Shown: one piece after another, positions 25,338 through 40,124 of the stretch
Position numbering within the stretch: position 1 is the stretch's first letter
Layout of the letters: each line of letters opens with the position of its first letter
From: a virus
Virus record (IMG/VR): IMGVR_UViG_3300042691_013591
Location: 1-40,217 of that record
Direction: 5' to 3' (one strand)
Length of the DNA: 40,217 bases
Notes under the pieces: model-generated
Told to the model about the DNA's origin: nothing
Seen by the model: the letters and a program-made list of their open reading frames with translations, nothing else
The model's database searches: none
Program-made: the position numbers and the translations under genes

Positions 25338-25639
25338 CCCCCACGTTTGGCCGCATCCTCCTCGTCGAGAAGAGTAAGGCGCTGATCGTGCCGCTGTCGG
25401 TGCCACCGTCATGGGCCAAAAAGAAGATCACGCTGGCGCTCTGCGACCTCGACAATGCACCGCTCGCCATGACGTTAGCCAAACAGGCCGCGTTCACCGG
25501 CCCCAGCATGGCGATTGCGTCGTACATGGCGCGAGACGTCGAGCTACATCTGATGCCGATCAGCGGGTCAAAGATTGCCATCGTCGCCAGTTGCGAGCTT
25601 GGCACCGTCGTCGATCACGCGACCGTCAGCGTTGCGTAG
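25334..25639 (+). CDS. Small unknown protein, last gene of the late block
   Basis: A 101-residue protein with hydrophobic strands (FGRILLVEKSKALIVPLSVP, GPSMAIASYMARDVELHLMP, SKIAIVASCELGTVV). ATG 25334 is preferred over earlier in-frame codons because it overlaps the previous stop (ATGA). It is the last gene before a strong terminator and the 1.5-kb gene-free region. Function not recognised. Confidence 0.6.
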   Translation: MTPTFGRILLVEKSKALIVPLSVPPSWAKKKITLALCDLDNAPLAMTLAKQAAFTGPSMAIASYMARDVELHLMPISGSKIAIVASCELGTVVDHATVSVA

Positions 25640-25650
25640 GGCACAAACGA

Positions 25651-25692
25651 AACCGGCTAGGTCTACTCTCGGGGGAGATGACCTAGCCGGTT
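25651..25692. terminator. Strong stem closing the late block
   Basis: AACCGGCTAGGTC (25651-25663) pairs perfectly with 25680-25692 over 13 bp. A second small stem TCTC/GAGA sits in the loop. The short T-run (GGTTTTAG) comes only after 25697, so termination may need the long stem itself. Confidence 0.75.
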
Positions 25693-25693
25693 C

Positions 25694-26261
25694 GTAGGTT
25701 TTAGTCCTTTCGGACGCCGGTAGTTTCGGGGCTTTCCTCGCGTCCACTCTCACGCAAACGCGGTACTCGCGGTCCTCTGTGCCGTTGCGAATGAACCTAC
25801 AGTAACTGGGCAAAACTGGCAAGTACCCAGACGAACAAAAACGTCTGGACATGACAAGGTTTACGCCTGTAGTACAAGGCGACCGTAGATGACGGCTGAC
25901 ATGAGGCTTTGATAAGCAGCGGGTGGTCCACTTGGTCCGCTCTGTCTCCGTCCTGTTTGTCACGCAGGAACCCCGCACAGAGGATAGACCAGTCGGCGCA
26001 GTAGACGCGCCGCGTCAGGCTCTTGCACTGACGCCATACACGCATACTACAGGCCCACGTTGCTCCTCAGCAGAGCGTGGATTCTTCTTCGCGTGTACGG
26101 GGCACTCCGTTATTTCGGCCACTTACCGCTGACAGTGGGCCGCGCCATAACCGAGAGTTAAAGACGCATCGCCGCGTTTACCGCGCCGACACCAGCACAA
26201 TATGCCGCCCGCCCACATTCGGCAAGCCTTTTCGTGGCCAGCCACGCCACAAGGTGGGCTT
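25694..26261 (+). ncRNA. Candidate large structured RNA, domain A
   Basis: No credible gene lies here; the open frames are Arg/Pro/Thr-rich, lack ribosome sites and do not tile the region. Nested perfect helices do: 25694-25700/25794-25800 encloses 25712-25717/25740-25745 and 25753-25757/25785-25789. Then come 25827-25833/25842-25848, 25951-25955/25965-25969, 25994-25999/26007-26012, 26013-26018/26028-26033, 26037-26043/26091-26097 (enclosing 26055-26059/26076-26080), 26116-26123/26134-26142, and a three-way element 26224-26261. Layout and size recall ornate phage RNAs such as GOLLD and ROOL, but I see no sequence match. Transcription is inferred only. Confidence 0.4.
26207..26217 (+). repeat. 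GCCCGCCCACA element, copy in gene-free region
   Basis: First copy of the 10-11 base motif that recurs from here to 37594 on the + strand. Confidence 0.6.
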
Positions 26262-26470
26262 ACAAGAGGTCACAAAAGTGCTCTTTTTGGTGTCATTAAG
26301 GCGACAGTAACCTGCCAGTAAGGCGCCATTTAGTCCTTAATACCCGAGCAAATTTGTGATATTTGGCCAAAATGTCACAAAAATGCTCTCTCCACGGCCT
26401 CGTAAGTCCTTTAAAATCAACAACTTACGCCATTTTAGCCTAGGTACTGCCAGAAAGCTATGCAACCTGC
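26262..26470. promoter_or_regulatory. AT-richer dyad cluster: candidate operator, promoter or origin
   Basis: This stretch is visibly AT-richer than its surroundings. It has a near-perfect dyad 26353-26381 (TTTGTGA ... TCACAAA) centred on TTTGGCCAAA (26362-26371). A 16-base direct repeat GTCACAAAAGTGCTCT occurs at 26269-26284 and again at 26374-26389 with one change. Inverted repeats are ATTAAGG/CCTTAAT (26295-26301/26335-26341) and CGTAAGT/ACTTACG (26401-26407/26423-26429). Such clustering fits a control region or replication origin; which one is not readable. Confidence 0.45.
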
Positions 26471-26538
26471 TATATTTCGACTAGTTCCACGACGGATGTC
26501 GTTGAACGGCAGGACAAAGCAGGACAGGCCGTCAGGCC

Positions 26539-26547
26539 GCCCGCCCA
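26539..26547 (+). repeat. GCCCGCCCA element, shortened copy
   Basis: Nine of ten motif bases, in the gene-free region upstream of domain B. Confidence 0.5.
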
Positions 26548-26573
26548 ACTGCAAGTACGGTCTCAACGGTTTG

Positions 26574-26700
26574 CCGATGCCTGAGCCGGTGCCCTTTGGT
26601 GGCACACATCGGAGCTTTTTGACAATTGATATGCAAACCCCTAGCGGTCGGCGCGGCCCGCCGCAACGCGCTAGGTGCGCTGGTAGGATGCCAGCGTTTT
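26574..26700 (+). ncRNA. Candidate structured RNA, domain B, ending in a terminator-like stem
   Basis: Three consecutive elements are visible: CCGATG/CATCGG (26574-26579/26607-26612) enclosing GTGCC/GGCAC (26589-26593/26601-26605); CTAGCG/CGCTAG (26641-26646/26669-26674) enclosing CGGCG/CGCCG (26649-26653/26659-26663); and CGCTGG/CCAGCG (26678-26683/26691-26696) followed by TTTT, a compact intrinsic terminator. The last stem could end an RNA starting in or before the AT-rich cluster. Confidence 0.4.
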
Positions 26701-26773
26701 CAGAGTCGAACCCGTCAGCCTAGCTGACCAGTGTGATGTGCTACCGATGCGATAGTCGATAGCAGCTTCCGCC

Positions 26774-26782
26774 GCCCGCCCA
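26774..26782 (+). repeat. GCCCGCCCA element, shortened copy
   Basis: Another copy in gene-free sequence, with GCC before it as in the intergenic copies. Confidence 0.5.
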
Positions 26783-26964
26783 GTGCGACGGCAGATGGCA
26801 ACGTGCGCTGGCAGTTGTCGTGTTGCAATTACGCAAAATCTACTGAACGATGCTCTCGGACAGCCCACACAATGTGGTGGCGCTCAGTGCCATGTAGTCG
26901 ATGGCCAGTGTTCCGCGTTCGGCGGTGAGTGAGCGATGCGATCAAGATTGACCCATAAGCTCTG

Positions 26965-26984
26965 GTAGCAGCGGTGACTGCTAC
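26965..26984 (+). other. Hairpin in gene-free region
   Basis: GTAGCAG (26965-26971) and CTGCTAC (26978-26984) pair perfectly around a 6-nt loop. Nearby, GTCAGC/GCTGAC (26714-26719/26723-26728) forms another stem. Apart from these stems, 26701-27060 shows no gene. Confidence 0.4.
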
Positions 26985-27068
26985 TCGCGACGCCATGCCA
27001 TGCCCTTGCCATGTCGCGAAAACGGTGCGTGTGAATCGCCCGTGCAAGCGTATGTCCAACCATTCAAC

Positions 27069-27104
27069 CGCATCGGCTGGAGCCTAGCAATTCCAGCCGG
27101 TGCG
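27069..27104 (+). other. 13-bp leader hairpin before the first early gene
   Basis: Arms 27069-27081 and 27092-27104 pair over 13 bp with one G-U and a 10-nt loop. It lies 50 bases before ATG 27158, so it may be an attenuator or leader stem. No T tract follows. Confidence 0.55.
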
Positions 27105-27124
27105 CCTGTAGTGCCTTCGTCCTA

Positions 27125-27160
27125 GCCCGCCCACACACAACCGCTCTGGTGCCTACCATG
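27125..27160 (+). repeat. Intergenic element, copy 1 (motif plus start-associated sequence)
   Basis: GCCCGCCCACACACA at 27125-27139 is followed by CTGGTGCCTACC directly before ATG 27158. Confidence 0.65.
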
Positions 27161-31809: not shown

Positions 31810-33762
31810 ATGCCACGAAACATTCCAACCCCACAAGCCGGATCAATCATGCCGAGAGTTTCCACGCATCTCCAGACTATCCGCAACGCGGACGCGTACG
31901 CCATTTCTTTGCGGACATCGACCATCCGGTCAGCCCTCAACAACGTCACGCGCTTGACGTTCGACTTCGTGCGTTCGCCTGAGTCTAAGGCGCGGCTGCA
32001 AACCCGCCGCGACGAAACGATCAAGCGGCTGCGGTCGGCGATGGTGGAGGCCACTCGCATGGAGCACGAGACCTCAAACACCCTTGATGTGACCAGCAGC
32101 GATCTGGTTCAATCGCAGCGCGTCCTGAGCCATGATCGCGCGATGGAGCTGGTTCGGCACTACTACCGCGCGATTGCCTCGAACACCCACCTGCTGTCAG
32201 CGAGCATGGTCCGTGCGCTGGTCTGGACAGTTGGCTATCACGCGGCGCGTCACGCGATGACATTCCACGAGATGTGCAGCCACTACGACTACGACCCGCA
32301 CTTCGATGTCGTCACGCCGCTGGCAGGCCGCGAGCGCGTCCATGTCCCGAACATTTCGCTGTTGAGCTTGAGCGCGGCGACCATGGACGAGCGAGGCGCT
32401 CAGTTTGAGCGGCTCTTCCCCAAGGTGTTGTACGCGCCAGTCCATGACGTCAGCACAACCATCTGGCCGTTTTACAACACGCAGCCCGCGTCGTGTGCTC
32501 GGTGCGGCGGTGTCCACCAGCAGATGCTGGAGCCAAGCAGCGTCACGTTCGACACAACCTCCTATGGAATGCGCCGGTTGTATTGCGGCCCATGCTCAGT
32601 GGCATCGCGGTGCGCGACCTGCGACAACACCAACCGTAGCTCCGTGTACCCGATCTACACGGTGCCGAACCACGAGACGCTTTCTGCGACGCACTCGTTT
32701 CGGTACAACGATCTCATCCCGACCGGCACCTTTACCTGCCTCGACTGCGCGAGCGACACGGACCAGCTTTCGCGTGTCTCGGTCGCTGGCTCGCACCGTT
32801 ACGTCCCGACCAGCGTGGCAGATCGCATGGTCCTGCCGGTGATCCAGCCGTACTCGCATCAGCCGCGCTACGTCATACACGGTGCGCCCAACGAACGCAT
32901 TGCCAGCGACTCGTTGACCTTCGGCATGGAGCTGGAGTGCGGCTTCAAGGTGAACCCGCGTGAGGCCGAGTGGTATGTTGAGCGGCTGGCGGCGGCTGAC
33001 ATCTACTTCAAGCGCGACGGCTCGGTGCAGAACGGCATTGAGGTCATCACACACCCGTTCACGTTCCGGTACTGGAAGGAAGTTGGATTCGCGCGGTGGA
33101 TTGAGCGTCTGGAAGCAATGAAGGCGCTCGGTATGCGGTCGTACAACTACCCAAACTGTGGCATCCACATCCACATGGCGAAGGCCGCGTTCTCTGTCGC
33201 GCAGACCAAGCGACTGCTCGACCTTGTGTATGGCAACCCAGACTTGTTTGCCAAGCTCAGCCAGCGCGACATTTTCGACTACTGCCGCTTGCAAGACCCT
33301 GACCGTGCGACACCGGAGATGCGCCTCAAGCGCGCGGTGGCGTCGGTTGGCTCAACGCGCCCACGCCAGATGAACCGAACGCGCGTCGTGGCGTTCATGG
33401 CGGCTGGCCTGAGCCGTTCGTCAGAGCGCCGTACCGCCGTCAACTTCCCCGACACCAAGCCGACCATTGAGTTGCGGCTGTTTCGCGGAACGCTCCACGC
33501 CCCGTCCGTGGCCAAGAACGTCGAGCTGTGCCATGCGCTCCATGCGTTCACGGCAGAGTCGCGCGGTGATGACATCACCATGGCCCGTGACTTTATCAGC
33601 TTCGTGTACGACAACGACAAGCTGTACAACAACCTCGCGGCGTTCATTGACCGCTGGTACCGCAAGTACCGTCCCGTTGCGCGTCAGGTGCCTCCGCAGT
33701 ACGTCGTTCTCCGCCCGCCCGTGAAGTTTGAAGACGCGGTGCTGGTCGCTGAAGCCAACTGA
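31810..33762 (+). CDS. Amidoligase family enzyme with zinc-cluster N-terminal half
   Basis: A 650-residue protein in two parts. Residues 1-225 are helical and unassigned. Eight cysteines follow as four CxxC pairs: C229/C232, C259/C262, C268/C271 and C310/C313, probably two zinc ribbons. The C-terminal part fits the phage putative amidoligase family (glutamine-synthetase fold): LTFGMELECGF with E374 and E376, FKRDGSVQ with D403, GIEVITHPF with E411, NCGIHIHM with H453 and H455, and PTIELRLFRGT. Such enzymes use ATP to join a carboxylate to an amine. It is paired with a class II glutamine amidotransferase, likely its ammonia source or partner. GGAG precedes ATG 31810. Confidence 0.78.
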   Translation: MPRNIPTPQAGSIMPRVSTHLQTIRNADAYAISLRTSTIRSALNNVTRLTFDFVRSPESKARLQTRRDETIKRLRSAMVEATRMEHETSNTLDVTSSDLVQSQRVLSHDRAMELVRHYYRAIASNTHLLSASMVRALVWTVGYHAARHAMTFHEMCSHYDYDPHFDVVTPLAGRERVHVPNISLLSLSAATMDERGAQFERLFPKVLYAPVHDVSTTIWPFYNTQPASCARCGGVHQQMLEPSSVTFDTTSYGMRRLYCGPCSVASRCATCDNTNRSSVYPIYTVPNHETLSATHSFRYNDLIPTGTFTCLDCASDTDQLSRVSVAGSHRYVPTSVADRMVLPVIQPYSHQPRYVIHGAPNERIASDSLTFGMELECGFKVNPREAEWYVERLAAADIYFKRDGSVQNGIEVITHPFTFRYWKEVGFARWIERLEAMKALGMRSYNYPNCGIHIHMAKAAFSVAQTKRLLDLVYGNPDLFAKLSQRDIFDYCRLQDPDRATPEMRLKRAVASVGSTRPRQMNRTRVVAFMAAGLSRSSERRTAVNFPDTKPTIELRLFRGTLHAPSVAKNVELCHALHAFTAESRGDDITMARDFISFVYDNDKLYNNLAAFIDRWYRKYRPVARQVPPQYVVLRPPVKFEDAVLVAEAN

Positions 33763-33792
33763 TCCTCTCCACACTCTCACACCAACACTCTC

Positions 33793-35178
33793 ATGTGCGT
33801 TGCTATTTATATCCCTGCTGGTGCCACGGTTGCTGAAAACATTCTGCGTGGCGTGTTCCGACGGAACGACGATGGCGTCGGTGTCGCGTGGTCGGACGGA
33901 TCGAAGCTCGACATCTGGCGCACGATGAACGACATCAACGGCGTGGTCTCCCTTGTCGCGTCGTTGCGTGACTATCCCGTGCTGGTCCACTTCCGCTATG
34001 CGACGCACGGCACCGTGACCATGGACAACGTGCATCCGTTCTGGCTTGACGAGCGCCGCCGCGCCGTCGTGGCCCATAACGGCGTTATCCAGATCGGCAT
34101 TGCCAACAACGAGTCCGACACGCGCTCGTTCGTCCGGAACGTGCTTGGCCAGATGAAAGACGGCTGGTGGAACAACCCCACCACGGTCTCGCAGATCGAA
34201 AAGCTCACCAACGGCTCGCGTGTCGTCATCATGGAAGACGACGGACGCCCGCACTTCCTCAACAAGCTTGCCGGTGAGACGTCGGCAGACAACGTGTGGT
34301 TCAGCAACTCGCAGTGGAAGGAGTTTGTTGACCCCACCGCCAAGAGTCTCCACGCTTCGATGATTCTCGCAGAGACTGGCGAGCGCAAGGCGTACACGCA
34401 TGGCACCGGCTCGGCCTATGCCGCATCCCACGGCAGCAGCCAGAGCGACTTCTGGCACCGTGGAGACCGTGACCCTTTCCAGTCGGCTTCGGCAACCAAG
34501 AGTCTGCCAGCAACGTCGGAGCCGAAGAAGACGACGAGTACGTCCGCTGGTGGTACGACCGCTACTCCCGTGACTACGCCGAGCAGCTCGTCGAGCGCGA
34601 GCAGCAAGACGACGAACGGCTCCAGCACTCCCTCAAGTGCCTCGTCAACATCGACGACTGGTTCAACGCACTCGGCGAAGGCGACCGTGACCGCTATCGG
34701 TCGTACTACAACCGGACCCGTGACGCAATCCGAAGTGGCCGAATGGATCAAAGCGTTTGGTCAAACGCTCGTCGCTGAGTACGGCGTCGGCTATGCCGCC
34801 ATGCCCGATGGCGCGTACGGCCACACGGTGTGCTACTGCAACGATTGCGTCCCTTCGTTTGTCGAAGATGGCCGCGCAGCGTTCACGGCGATGGTCACGG
34901 CTATCTGCTTGCTAGACGGCTCGCTTTCGGAGATGGCCTGTGTCACCTGCCAGACGCCCATGGCTGATGCGGCGCGAGCCATGTACGCGGACGCCTTTGA
35001 GGCGGCAGAGGCGGAACACCTTGAGGCAGAAGACAGCACCACCGACGACCCAAGCTGGCTTGAGGTCGATTTGCCGACCGCTCACGCGCAAGCGGACGGC
35101 GCAACCGCAACCACGGAGGAACAGAAGACCGCGATGGTGTCCGGCTCGGCTATGGCCGACTTCCCCTACTCAGACTAA
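33793..35178 (+). CDS. Class II glutamine amidotransferase (zero-frame product)
   Basis: A 461-residue protein that should release ammonia from glutamine. Residues 1-200 are the N-terminal nucleophile domain: Cys2 directly after Met (MCVAIYIPAGA), FRRNDDGVGVAW, HFRYATHG at 66-73, NVHPFW and AHNGVI with N96-G97, which match the oxyanion and substrate residues of the family. Residues 230-320 are a Ser/Thr-rich linker. The C-terminal domain has CYCNDC and CVTCQTP cysteine pairs, then an acidic tail. The linker coincides with a better-formed -1 frame. No Shine-Dalgarno is seen; CACTCTC precedes the ATG. It follows the amidoligase. Confidence 0.8.
   Translation: MCVAIYIPAGATVAENILRGVFRRNDDGVGVAWSDGSKLDIWRTMNDINGVVSLVASLRDYPVLVHFRYATHGTVTMDNVHPFWLDERRRAVVAHNGVIQIGIANNESDTRSFVRNVLGQMKDGWWNNPTTVSQIEKLTNGSRVVIMEDDGRPHFLNKLAGETSADNVWFSNSQWKEFVDPTAKSLHASMILAETGERKAYTHGTGSAYAASHGSSQSDFWHRGDRDPFQSASATKSLPATSEPKKTTSTSAGGTTATPVTTPSSSSSASSKTTNGSSTPSSASSTSTTGSTHSAKATVTAIGRTTTGPVTQSEVAEWIKAFGQTLVAEYGVGYAAMPDGAYGHTVCYCNDCVPSFVEDGRAAFTAMVTAICLLDGSLSEMACVTCQTPMADAARAMYADAFEAAEAEHLEAEDSTTDDPSWLEVDLPTAHAQADGATATTEEQKTAMVSGSAMADFPYSD
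34479..34778 (+). CDS. Hidden -1 frame: candidate frameshift extension of the amidotransferase
   Basis: This frame has no start codon, so it is reachable only by a -1 shift from the amidotransferase. The in-frame heptamer C CCT TTC at 34473-34479 fits X XXY YYZ, and the -1 frame stops right before it (TGA 34470-34472), so it opens exactly here. It gives 229 + 99 = 328 residues. Its sequence (EYVRWWYDRYSRDYAEQLVE, SLKCLVNIDDWFNALGEGD, YRSYYNRTRDAIRSGR) has normal globular composition and GC-rich third positions, while the zero frame is Ser/Thr-only. Compensating indels are an alternative. Confidence 0.4.
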   Translation, partial: PVGFGNQESASNVGAEEDDEYVRWWYDRYSRDYAEQLVEREQQDDERLQHSLKCLVNIDDWFNALGEGDRDRYRSYYNRTRDAIRSGRMDQSVWSNARR

Positions 35179-38475: not shown

Positions 38476-38950
38476 CGGGACATGGCTGGCGCGGCTCATG
38501 CTCGACAAGCGCGTTCTGTCTGTGTCGGCCACCAGCCGGTTGGTCTATGTGGCGCTCATGGCGACCACGCGCCGCCCATACGTAGACCGCTCGCCGTTTC
38601 TTTTGAGCAGTCTCTCGACGCTCACCGGATTAACCCCGTTTACGGTTAACGAGTCGCTGAAGGCGCTTGAAGACAGCGGGTTGCTGATCCGCAGCGCAAA
38701 GCAGTATTCGGACGCCTATTACCTGCCAGACGCTATGGCGTTTGACAACAGCCTGAGTCCGAAGAACCCCAACCATCGGCTGGCCGTACAGAAGCGGCTG
38801 TCGAAGATCAGAGCCTACGCGCCGGACCTCTGCGACCAATTCCTCGCAGACAACCCGAAGTGGCTACCAAAACACTCAACCCACGAGCGCAACGATGAAG
38901 TGGAGTCCACAGCAGGACGCCGCACTGGTCCAGATCAACCAGTGGCTTGA
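38456..38950 (+). CDS. Winged-helix DNA-binding protein, possible replication factor
   Basis: A 164-residue basic protein. The core SVSATSRLVYVALMATTRRP, PFLLSSLSTLTGLTPFTVNESLKALEDSGLLIRSAK is a clear winged-helix pattern: a helix, then a recognition helix 'lT.fTVn.sLkaLe..GLL'. Replication initiators and DnaD-like proteins use this fold. TTG 38456 is a start because GAGGAGG lies at 38443-38449, six bases away. Its end overlaps the helicase start by 56 bases, suggesting coupling. Specific target unknown. Confidence 0.65.
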   Translation: MPRKISNGTWLARLMLDKRVLSVSATSRLVYVALMATTRRPYVDRSPFLLSSLSTLTGLTPFTVNESLKALEDSGLLIRSAKQYSDAYYLPDAMAFDNSLSPKNPNHRLAVQKRLSKIRAYAPDLCDQFLADNPKWLPKHSTHERNDEVESTAGRRTGPDQPVA

Positions 38951-40124
38951 CGCCCCAGACACGCAGGTCTTGAAGCTCTTTGGCTATGCTGGCACTGGCA
39001 AAACCACGCTGGCAAAGACCATCGCCGAAGACATTGATGGCCCTGTACAGTTTGCCGCGTACACCGGCAAGGCCGCGTCGGTCATGCGAGAAAAGGGGTG
39101 CTACACCGCGCAAACGCTCCATTCGCTGGTCTACACCGTCGATGCGGTCATCAACGAAGACGAGCTGGCGCTCCGTGCGGCGCTTGACGCAACCGAAGAC
39201 CCCGACGAGCGAAAGCGCCTCGTCTACGCGCTGCGGAAGGTGGTTGCTGCGGCCAATGCGCGACGATGGATCATCAATCGTGACGGCCCATTAGCGTCCG
39301 CGCACCTGCTCATCCTTGATGAGTGCTCCATGGTGGACGAGCGGCTTGGCGCAGACATTCTCTCGTTCAATAAGCCCGTGTTGGTGCTCGGTGATCCCGG
39401 CCAGTTGCCGCCGCCAACCGGCGCTGGCTTTTTCGTCAAAGACCCCGACATCCTCCTGACGGAAATCCACCGTCAGGCTAAGGACAATCCGATCATTCGG
39501 ATGGCCACGGATGTCCGCGAAGGTCGCGTCCCCAAGTATGGCACCAGCGCTGGCGCAGGTGGCTCAACGGCAGTCACCAAGAACCGCGAAGAGTTCCACG
39601 CCTTTGGGGGACAATTCTTGACTGGAGCGAACGCCACGCGGCGCAAGATCAACTGGCGAGAGCGATGCGCCTACCTTGGCACACGCCAGCCGCCGCTGCA
39701 TCCTCAAAAGGGCGAGCCGATGATCGTGCTTCGGAACAACAAAGAGCTTGGCATCTTCAACGGCGTGATTGGGGAGATGGCGTCAGATACGGTGTGGACC
39801 GCCGAAGGAGACGCGGCCGACTTGCGCGGCGATCTTGTGTATGAAGGGCGGTACATGGCCGACCTGTTCATCGACGGATCGGTGTTTCGACAGTACACCG
39901 ACATCAACGCGCCGCAGCCGCCACTGCCATATGATCGCGACAAGACCCCTCTGGACTTTGGCTACGCCTTGACCGTACATAAGGCGCAAGGCTCGGAATG
40001 GCCGGATGTCTGCCTTGTCGATGATGGGTTCGCGTCGCGCGATCCTGATGTTCGTTCGCGATGGTTGTACACGGCAATCACTCGCGCCTCTCACAACTTT
40101 ATGCTGTACACGGGTGTGGTATGA
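38895..40124 (+). CDS. RecD/Dda-type DNA helicase (SF1B)
   Basis: A 409-residue helicase that should move 5'-3' on ssDNA using ATP. Motifs: Walker A GYAGTGKT (30-37), Walker B LILDECSM with D142-E143, motif III-type GDPGQLPP, ITEIHRQ-type motif IV (LLTEIHRQAKDNPI), and the C-terminal UvrD-like motifs LTVHKAQGSEW with H362-K363 and LYTAITRA. Size agrees with T4 Dda and phage RecD-like proteins, smaller than bacterial RecD2. It overlaps the winged-helix gene upstream and the next gene by ATGA. It probably functions at replication or recombination forks. Confidence 0.88.
   Translation: MKWSPQQDAALVQINQWLDAPDTQVLKLFGYAGTGKTTLAKTIAEDIDGPVQFAAYTGKAASVMREKGCYTAQTLHSLVYTVDAVINEDELALRAALDATEDPDERKRLVYALRKVVAAANARRWIINRDGPLASAHLLILDECSMVDERLGADILSFNKPVLVLGDPGQLPPPTGAGFFVKDPDILLTEIHRQAKDNPIIRMATDVREGRVPKYGTSAGAGGSTAVTKNREEFHAFGGQFLTGANATRRKINWRERCAYLGTRQPPLHPQKGEPMIVLRNNKELGIFNGVIGEMASDTVWTAEGDAADLRGDLVYEGRYMADLFIDGSVFRQYTDINAPQPPLPYDRDKTPLDFGYALTVHKAQGSEWPDVCLVDDGFASRDPDVRSRWLYTAITRASHNFMLYTGVV

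What the first reader, a model, noticed from the sequence alone, without database searches (positions are those of the whole stretch)
25640..27157. A 1.5-kb gene-free region dense in nested helices: candidate ornate non-coding RNA
Seen: no credible gene in about 1500 bases of an otherwise packed phage genome. Instead there are more than twenty stems of 4-13 bp, many perfect and several nested (25694-25800 multi-branch; 26037-26097; 26224-26261 three-way element; 26574-26700 with a TTTT-ended stem). Established: phages carry large ornate RNAs such as GOLLD and ROOL of similar size and style. Inference: this is a new large RNA or an RNA pair, perhaps divided by the AT-rich cluster at 26262-26470. 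The late block ends just upstream with a strong stem, and the region is next to early genes, so it may be transcribed independently.
Basis: partly seen in the sequence, partly recalled or inferred. Interest (0 to 1): 0.85.

Follow-up and report, generated by a model that had tools for sequence, protein, structure and literature searches.

The report
Phage RNA shared with jumping genes
Part of a gene-free stretch in this phage, read on the opposite strand from the phage genes, encodes a folded RNA with a pseudoknot that belongs to a family absent from the public RNA library and otherwise found near the ends of unrelated bacterial insertion sequences, so it is probably a new class of RNA used by mobile DNA, with its job still unknown.

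Summary
The 1.5-kb gap is truly gene-free. A related phage (only one found, in two identical records) has a 1.4-kb gene-free gap at the same place. One of them, 26037-26097, leads to something real. Its core, read on the minus strand, is GCUCUGCUGNNGAGCAAC. Scans for it hit 35 viral stretches and at least 118 bacterial ones. In most of them a flanking stem (P2) covaries. In ten phage members, including the window, the strand after P2 pairs with a strand about 110-220 nt downstream, just before (N)WAAAC; this pseudoknot differs in sequence in every member. Bacterial members show the same plan and lie 80-145 nt inside one end of insertion sequences of IS110, IS3-like and Mutator kinds (other end in IS481-like). 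No Rfam family matches. The window therefore encodes a leftward RNA, within roughly 26200-25693, convergent with the late genes and facing a shared terminator hairpin (25651-25692). The AT-rich block 26262-26500 looks like conserved control DNA. 26500-27157 shows no supported RNA. Function unknown; host-factor binding is my guess.

The parts
25693..26200 (-). Proposed non-coding RNA gene, transcribed leftward (5' end around 26100-26200, 3' end at the terminator hairpin). Limits are inferred.
   Evidence: Conserved patch 25884-26189 at 59% identity (E 7e-9) with L090:1483-1797, gene-free in both; helices below
26059..26076 (-). Conserved apical core GCUCUGCUGAGGAGCAAC (family GCUCUGCUGNNGAGCAAC)
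   Evidence: Exact pattern found in 35 viral and at least 118 bacterial stretches; identical in the relative apart from the two free positions
26077..26080 (-). P2 5' strand CCAC
   Evidence: Pairs with 26055-26058; covaries across 17 and 10 members
26055..26058 (-). P2 3' strand GTGG
   Evidence: As above; relative has CCAT/ATGG, a C-G to U-A compensatory change
26081..26090 (-). Purine-rich strand GAAGAAGAAT (J5), like GAAGNGGAA of bacterial members
   Evidence: coordinates; alignment A7
26091..26100 (-). P1 5' strand CCGTACACGC
   Evidence: 10 bp with 26034-26043; P1 starts 12-16 nt from the core in 7 of 10 phage members with unrelated sequences
26034..26043 (-). P1 3' strand GCGTGTATGG
26045..26054 (-). 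Pseudoknot strand J, GCCTGTAGTA, directly after P2
25865..25874 (-). Pseudoknot strand K, TACTACAGGC
   Evidence: 10 bp with J; the relative has GCTCCACCA/TGGTGGAGC at the same place
25859..25864 (-). GTAAAC following K (family NWAAAC; UNARAAAACC in bacterial members)
26116..26142 (-). Extra hairpin CGGCCCACT...AGTGGCCG upstream of P1
   Evidence: Relative has GGCCTACG...CGTGGCC, one compensatory change (U-A to G-C), by eye; two sequences only
25651..25692 (.). 18-bp hairpin between the convergent late genes (+) and the RNA (-): probable bidirectional terminator
   Evidence: 89% complementary arms; z about -3 to -5; equivalent hairpin in the relative at L090 about 1194-1221
26262..26500 (.). 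AT-rich block with (G/A)TCACAAA sites at 26269, 26353(-), 26374, hairpin 26401-26429 and CTATATTTC at 26470: probable promoter/operator DNA, origin not excluded
   Evidence: Individually conserved patches with the relative; sites located. The 8-mer is not enriched genome-wide, so the case rests on conservation, not on number
26500..27157 (.). Remaining gene-free DNA; no supported RNA, little conservation except TTTGACAA near 26617; holds two of the three GCCGCCCGCCCA copies that lie inside the gap

Best explanation
The left part of the gap encodes a pseudoknotted non-coding RNA on the minus strand, transcribed leftward from or near the AT-rich block, convergent with the late operon and stopping at the shared hairpin 25651-25692. 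It is the phage branch of an RNA family that bacterial insertion sequences carry near one end. Supported here: core plus P1, P2 and a long-range pseudoknot with strong covariation, a gene-free setting, no Rfam match, and presence near the ends of insertion sequences with unrelated transposases. Inferred: the transcript itself, its ends and its strand in the phage. Proposed mechanism (about 35% by itself): the stacked P1/P2/pseudoknot presents the invariant GCUCUGCUG-GAGCAAC hairpin and the (N)WAAAC strand as a binding surface for a widely conserved host component such as the ribosome, RNA polymerase or an RNase, and thereby changes host or element gene expression in favour of the mobile element, in trans. 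The unvarying hairpin against freely varying stems, the variable orientation to the transposase gene and the absence of a shared partner gene all point to a host partner rather than an element-encoded one.
For: P2 flanks: all four pairs standard in 16 of 30 distinct viral hits (0.6 expected) and 49 of 63 bacterial hits (1.3 expected); 17-member alignment 100% paired, covariation score 0.424 vs 0.109 shuffled, 0/500. Pseudoknot: mean J:K helix 8.1 in 14 viral members chosen on P2 alone, against 4.85 +/- 0.25 when K strands are swapped among members (largest of 200 swaps 5.67); in the 10 members where it was located, all 9 pairs have changes on both sides and the covariation score is 1.16 vs 0.26, slid controls at most 0.21. 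Bacterial members: J=AG[G/C/A]NAUA and K=NAUG[C/G/U]CU, position J3:K5 is G-C 39, C-G 14, A-U 1 of 59. Mobile: repeat units end 80-145 nt outside the core in IS110-type (L186/L214), IS3-like rve (L184, L187/L254) and Mutator-type (L200/L288) elements, and on the other side in IS481-like (L229/L268) elements; 30 copies in one genome; only 5 of 61 Flavobacterium genomes. Strand: TAnnTTTG-like boxes just upstream in Bacteroidota members and U-run hairpins downstream; GU 12 vs AC 3 at pairs 1-3 of bacterial members. Convergent layout with a hairpin after the late genes in the window and the relative.
Against: No transcript data. GU/AC counts do not settle the strand for phage members, so the strand rests on homology with bacterial members. 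Only one relative of this phage was found. The pseudoknot did not pass the plain contiguous-helix test in bacterial members (4.8 vs 5.0); it needs a constant mismatch there. Homology of phage-type and insertion-sequence-type members rests on the core, P2, the purine strand and the relative position of J, K and AAAAC, not on overall similarity. The located pseudoknots were chosen as positives. The mechanism step has no direct evidence.
Confidence: 0.62

Rival explanations
1. Cis-acting control RNA: transcribed toward the end of the opposing operon, it limits or times convergent expression (transposase in insertion sequences, late genes here) as an antisense or attenuating leader, with the hairpin between J and K acting as a conditional terminator.
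For: RNA is convergent with the transposase in IS110-type, IS3-like and Mutator-type elements and with the late genes here; in many bacterial members a hairpin with a U-run lies between J and K.
Against: In the IS481-like and NaphS2 elements the RNA is on the same strand as, and downstream of, the transposase genes, and several phage members share the strand of their neighbours, so orientation is not conserved.
Confidence: 0.2
2. Self-cleaving ribozyme or RNA processing element: the conserved hairpin and AAAC strand form an active site that trims element transcripts.
For: Pseudoknotted fold with small conserved patches and freely varying stems, in mobile elements, as in known small ribozymes (general knowledge); architecture.
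Against: No Rfam ribozyme family matches; J-K spans of roughly 110-220 nt in phages are large for the known small ribozymes (general knowledge). No cleavage data.
Confidence: 0.12
3. DNA element: replication origin, operator cluster or recombination site, with helices that are only DNA palindromes.
For: AT-rich block with repeated (G/A)TCACAAA sites conserved in the relative; GC-skew changes sign nearby.
Against: Applies to 26262-26500, not to the RNA part: long-range covarying strands 110-220 nt apart and terminator-like hairpins in bacterial members are not expected of DNA sites. The 8-mer itself is not enriched in the window.
Confidence: 0.08
4. Degraded gene or genes, with no function of its own.
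For: A 143-aa minus-strand ORF overlaps the conserved patch in the relative; three GCCGCCCGCCCA copies, a motif that mostly precedes early genes, sit in the gap.
Against: That ORF scores 0.035 per codon against about 0.18-0.21 for genes in that phage, is broken in the window by stops and frame changes, has no Pfam or PHROG match, and ORFs do not explain the covariation. Decay remains plausible for 26500-27157.
Confidence: 0.04

Closest known systems
GOLLD and ROOL RNAs (Rfam; PMC12286853)
   Same: Structured, pseudoknotted RNAs of unknown function in phages and prophages; two of the phage loci here (L123, L155) also lie near tRNA genes
   Different: No Rfam match in the window or in any member locus tested; smaller core; also inside insertion sequences; different conserved patches
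IS110/IS1111 bridge RNA or seekRNA (PMC11208160, PMC11187229)
   Same: Structured RNA in the non-coding end of an insertion sequence; some members here lie in IS110-type elements
   Different: Also in IS3-like, IS481-like and Mutator-type elements and in phages with no IS110 recombinase beside it; J and K vary but pair with each other inside the RNA instead of serving as target guides
HEARO/omega RNAs of IscB and TnpB elements
   Same: RNAs carried by mobile elements
   Different: No Rfam match; no IscB or TnpB gene was identified beside the members examined
Pseudoknotted small ribozymes (for example pistol, HDV-like)
   Same: Pseudoknot plus small conserved patches, scattered in phages and mobile elements (general knowledge)
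   Different: No Rfam match; no cleavage evidence

Membership tests
GOLLD | Match to the Rfam covariance model | tested here: not met
   cmscan at gathering and permissive thresholds
ROOL | Match to the Rfam covariance model | tested here: not met
   Same calls
GOLLD/ROOL | RNA-only multimer or nanocage | not testable with these tools
   Needs cryo-EM or sizing
IS110/IS1111 bridge RNA or seekRNA | Adjacent IS110-type recombinase | tested here: not met
   No IS110 match among the window proteins submitted, which include the neighbouring early genes but not every window gene; many members lie with rve or Mutator transposases
IS110/IS1111 bridge RNA or seekRNA | Guide loops complementary to target and donor | not tested
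   Not examined
HEARO/omega RNA | Rfam match and an IscB or TnpB neighbour | tested here: not met
   No Rfam match; none found among the neighbours given to Pfam
tRNA/tmRNA | ARAGORN or Rfam match | tested here: not met
New RNA family described here | Core GCUCUGCUGNNGAGCAAC with a complementary P2 | tested here: met
   26055-26080 (-)
New RNA family described here | J:K pseudoknot followed by NWAAAC | tested here: met
   26045-26054 with 25865-25874, then GTAAAC
New RNA family described here | Own promoter and stable transcript | not testable with these tools
   Promoter-like boxes seen only in bacterial members by eye

The most novel reading that the evidence does not exclude
A previously undescribed RNA class spread horizontally among insertion sequences of several unrelated transposase types and phages across many bacterial phyla, acting through one conserved host target, so that a shared RNA module gives very different mobile elements the same advantage.
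Probability: 0.45. Interest if true: 0.92.

Novelty: categorically new. Interest (0 to 1): 0.78.

Why it matters
If right, this is an RNA family, absent from Rfam 15, that crosses the boundary between insertion sequences with unrelated transposases and phages. A shared RNA module implies a shared host target or a shared problem, and gives an entry point to it. 'Categorically new' refers to the RNA family. In the broad sense of structured RNAs of mobile elements with unknown function it joins GOLLD and ROOL. The literature check covered only the open-access library held here, so earlier description elsewhere is possible.

Tried and rejected
Single-protein scans for relatives (three from genes flanking the gap, one from an early gene) found none; the helicase alignment found the one useful relative. 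BLAST of the gap and of three other member loci against known phages gave nothing. The core is absent from the Mesyanzhinovviridae-like helicase loci held (four matches at E 0.18-4.2 only, taken as chance). A hidden gene was rejected. A tRNA/tmRNA or housekeeping RNA was rejected (only 5 of 61 Flavobacterium genomes). A shared protein partner was sought next to members: terminase genes in some phages, UvdE and an unassigned 380-400 aa protein in L123/L155, transposases in insertion sequences, none common. A contiguous pseudoknot test on insertion-sequence members failed before the constant mismatch was recognised. One row of alignment A7 (L213) was cut at wrong coordinates and should be ignored. 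Several literature searches found no description of such an RNA; Weinberg et al. 2017 is not held.

Full report
Setting. The window is a linear IMG/VR virus fragment of 40,217 bases. Late genes, including a Phage_tube_2 tail tube protein, run on the plus strand to 25639. Early genes, including a Dda-like helicase at 38895-40124, run on the plus strand from ATG 27158. The helicase is 42-46% identical to those of Pam3, PaMx11 and M6.

Check of the observation. No ORF inside 25640-27157 has the codon usage of this genome's genes, Pfam finds nothing in the largest ones, and Rfam finds nothing. The one permissive Rfam hit, 25600-25628, is far below its cut-off. Folding energy in 120-nt windows is slightly lower inside the gap (mean z -1.1) than outside (-0.45, sd 1.27). 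The clear outliers are the hairpin after the late genes and windows near 25781-25900, 26181-26300 and 26341-26460. By energy alone the 'ornate RNA' would not have been supported.

A relative. The helicase alignment found two IMG/VR records, identical over the 5 kb compared, 72% identical in helicase and colinear with the window. Their flanking genes are 34-64% identical in protein. The relative also has a 1.4-kb gene-free gap at the same place. The gaps are only 48% identical in a global alignment, with clear conserved patches: 25884-26189 (59%, E 7e-9), CAYGTTGCTCNNCAGCAGAGCRTGGA, the (G/A)TCACAAA block, the CGTAAGT hairpin, CTATATTTC and TTTGACAA. The patch 25884-26189 has stops and frame changes in the window, so it is not a conserved protein.

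The core is a widespread RNA hairpin. An exact scan of viral contigs for GTTGCTCNNCAGCAGAGC gave 35 stretches. Many have flanking strands that are complementary to each other and different from locus to locus. Of 30 distinct viral hits, 16 have four standard flanking pairs, where 0.6 are expected. Over 17 viral members all 170 cells pair, with a covariation score of 0.424 against 0.109 in shuffles, and all four unconstrained pairs change on both sides. The scan constrained only the 16 core bases, so this is not built in, although the 17 were picked for having the stem.

Which strand. In Bacteroidota members the reverse complement has a TAnnTTTG-like promoter box just upstream of the outer stem and a hairpin with a U-run downstream (read by eye). 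At pairs 1-3 of the bacterial members G-U outnumbers A-C by 12 to 3 on that strand. I therefore take the RNA as GCUCUGCUGNNGAGCAAC, which is the minus strand here. The viral set alone does not decide it.

The pseudoknot. The strand right after P2 (J) pairs with a strand (K) downstream, followed by (N)WAAAC: window GCCTGTAGTA/TACTACAGGC-GTAAAC; relative GCTCCACCA/TGGTGGAGC-GTAAAC; L123 ACCTACGAAGA/TCTTCGTAGGT-ATAAAC; L145, L148, L149, L129, L155, L135 and L128 likewise. J lies inside P1, so J:K crosses P1. Among 14 viral members chosen only by P2, the mean longest J:K helix is 8.1, against 4.85 +/- 0.25 when K strands are swapped among members. On the ten located examples all nine J:K pairs have changes on both sides and the score far exceeds slid and shuffled controls. 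That last alignment joins cut-out segments and was chosen as positive, so the swap test is the fairer one. P1 starts 12-16 nt before the core in seven of the ten.

Insertion sequences. Bacterial members share GAAGNGGAA, the core, AGSNAUA and AUGSCUNARAAAACC (alignment A7). AGSNAUA and NAUGSCU pair with a constant mismatch, and the variable position covaries G-C 39, C-G 14, A-U 1 of 59. Comparing copies shows repeat units that contain the RNA: IS110-type L186/L214 from -80 to +1503; rve-type (IS3-like) L184 from -120 to +1363; Mutator-type L200/L288 from -86 to +1253; IS481-like L229/L268 from -1074 to +146; and a multi-gene element in strain NaphS2 ending at +301, with transposase domains confirmed by Pfam. 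NaphS2 has 30 copies of the core, and only 5 of 61 Flavobacterium genomes have any, so it is mobile, not housekeeping. No Rfam family matches these loci.

The window's RNA. Minus strand: P1 26100-26091 with 26043-26034; purine strand 26090-26081; P2 26080-26077 with 26058-26055; core 26076-26059; J 26054-26045; K 25874-25865; GTAAAC 25864-25859. An extra hairpin at 26142-26116 has one compensatory change in the relative (by eye). Leftward transcription would meet the late-gene hairpin 25651-25692; the relative has an equivalent hairpin. The upstream limit and the promoter are inferred.

How it works. Shown: structure and distribution. Inferred: a stable transcript on the minus strand. Guess: an RNA that binds a conserved host component in trans. 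Its hairpin is conserved across phyla while its stems vary freely, its orientation to the element's genes is not fixed, and no partner gene travels with it. The main rival is cis control of the converging operon. A ribozyme is possible. A DNA-only site or a decayed gene does not explain the covariation.

Novelty. Not GOLLD, ROOL, HEARO or tmRNA by Rfam; not an IS110 bridge RNA by context. Rfam 15 and an open-access library were all I could consult, so earlier description elsewhere is possible.

Noticed in passing
26204, 26536, 26771, 27123, 27523, 27991, 28622, 29478, 30606, 31744, 33711, 36184, 37034, 37583: Motif GCCGCCCGCCCACA: 12 matches to CCGCCCGCCCA with one mismatch allowed (1.8 expected), all plus strand and all right of 26204; several sit between a stop codon and the next start. 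It resembles the start-associated sequences of some mycobacteriophages (from memory). Three copies inside the gap have no clear gene after them.
   Followed up: partly
26262-26500: AT-rich block with repeated (G/A)TCACAAA sites and a palindrome, individually conserved in the relative, which also has several TTTGTGAT copies: operator cluster, divergent promoter or origin.
   Followed up: partly
31810-35178: Amidoligase_2 protein next to a class-II glutamine amidotransferase-like protein (GATase_4), conserved in the relative: a possible peptide or wall modification module.
   Followed up: no
L123:4607-5800 (-), L155:7952-9094 (-): 380-400 aa proteins upstream of the RNA in two related phages, with N-terminal VLDLGSN / VVDCGTN that recalls an RNase H-like fold; no Pfam, PHROG or PDB match. 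A UvdE endonuclease gene follows the RNA.
   Followed up: partly
genome of L222 (G007, delta proteobacterium NaphS2): 30 exact copies of the RNA core in one draft genome, tied to a multi-gene element with an rve transposase and an AAA ATPase.
   Followed up: partly
L209: The RNA with a Mutator-type transposase fragment lies directly after genes that read like a qatB-qatC-qatD defence cluster (by eye, not tested).
   Followed up: no
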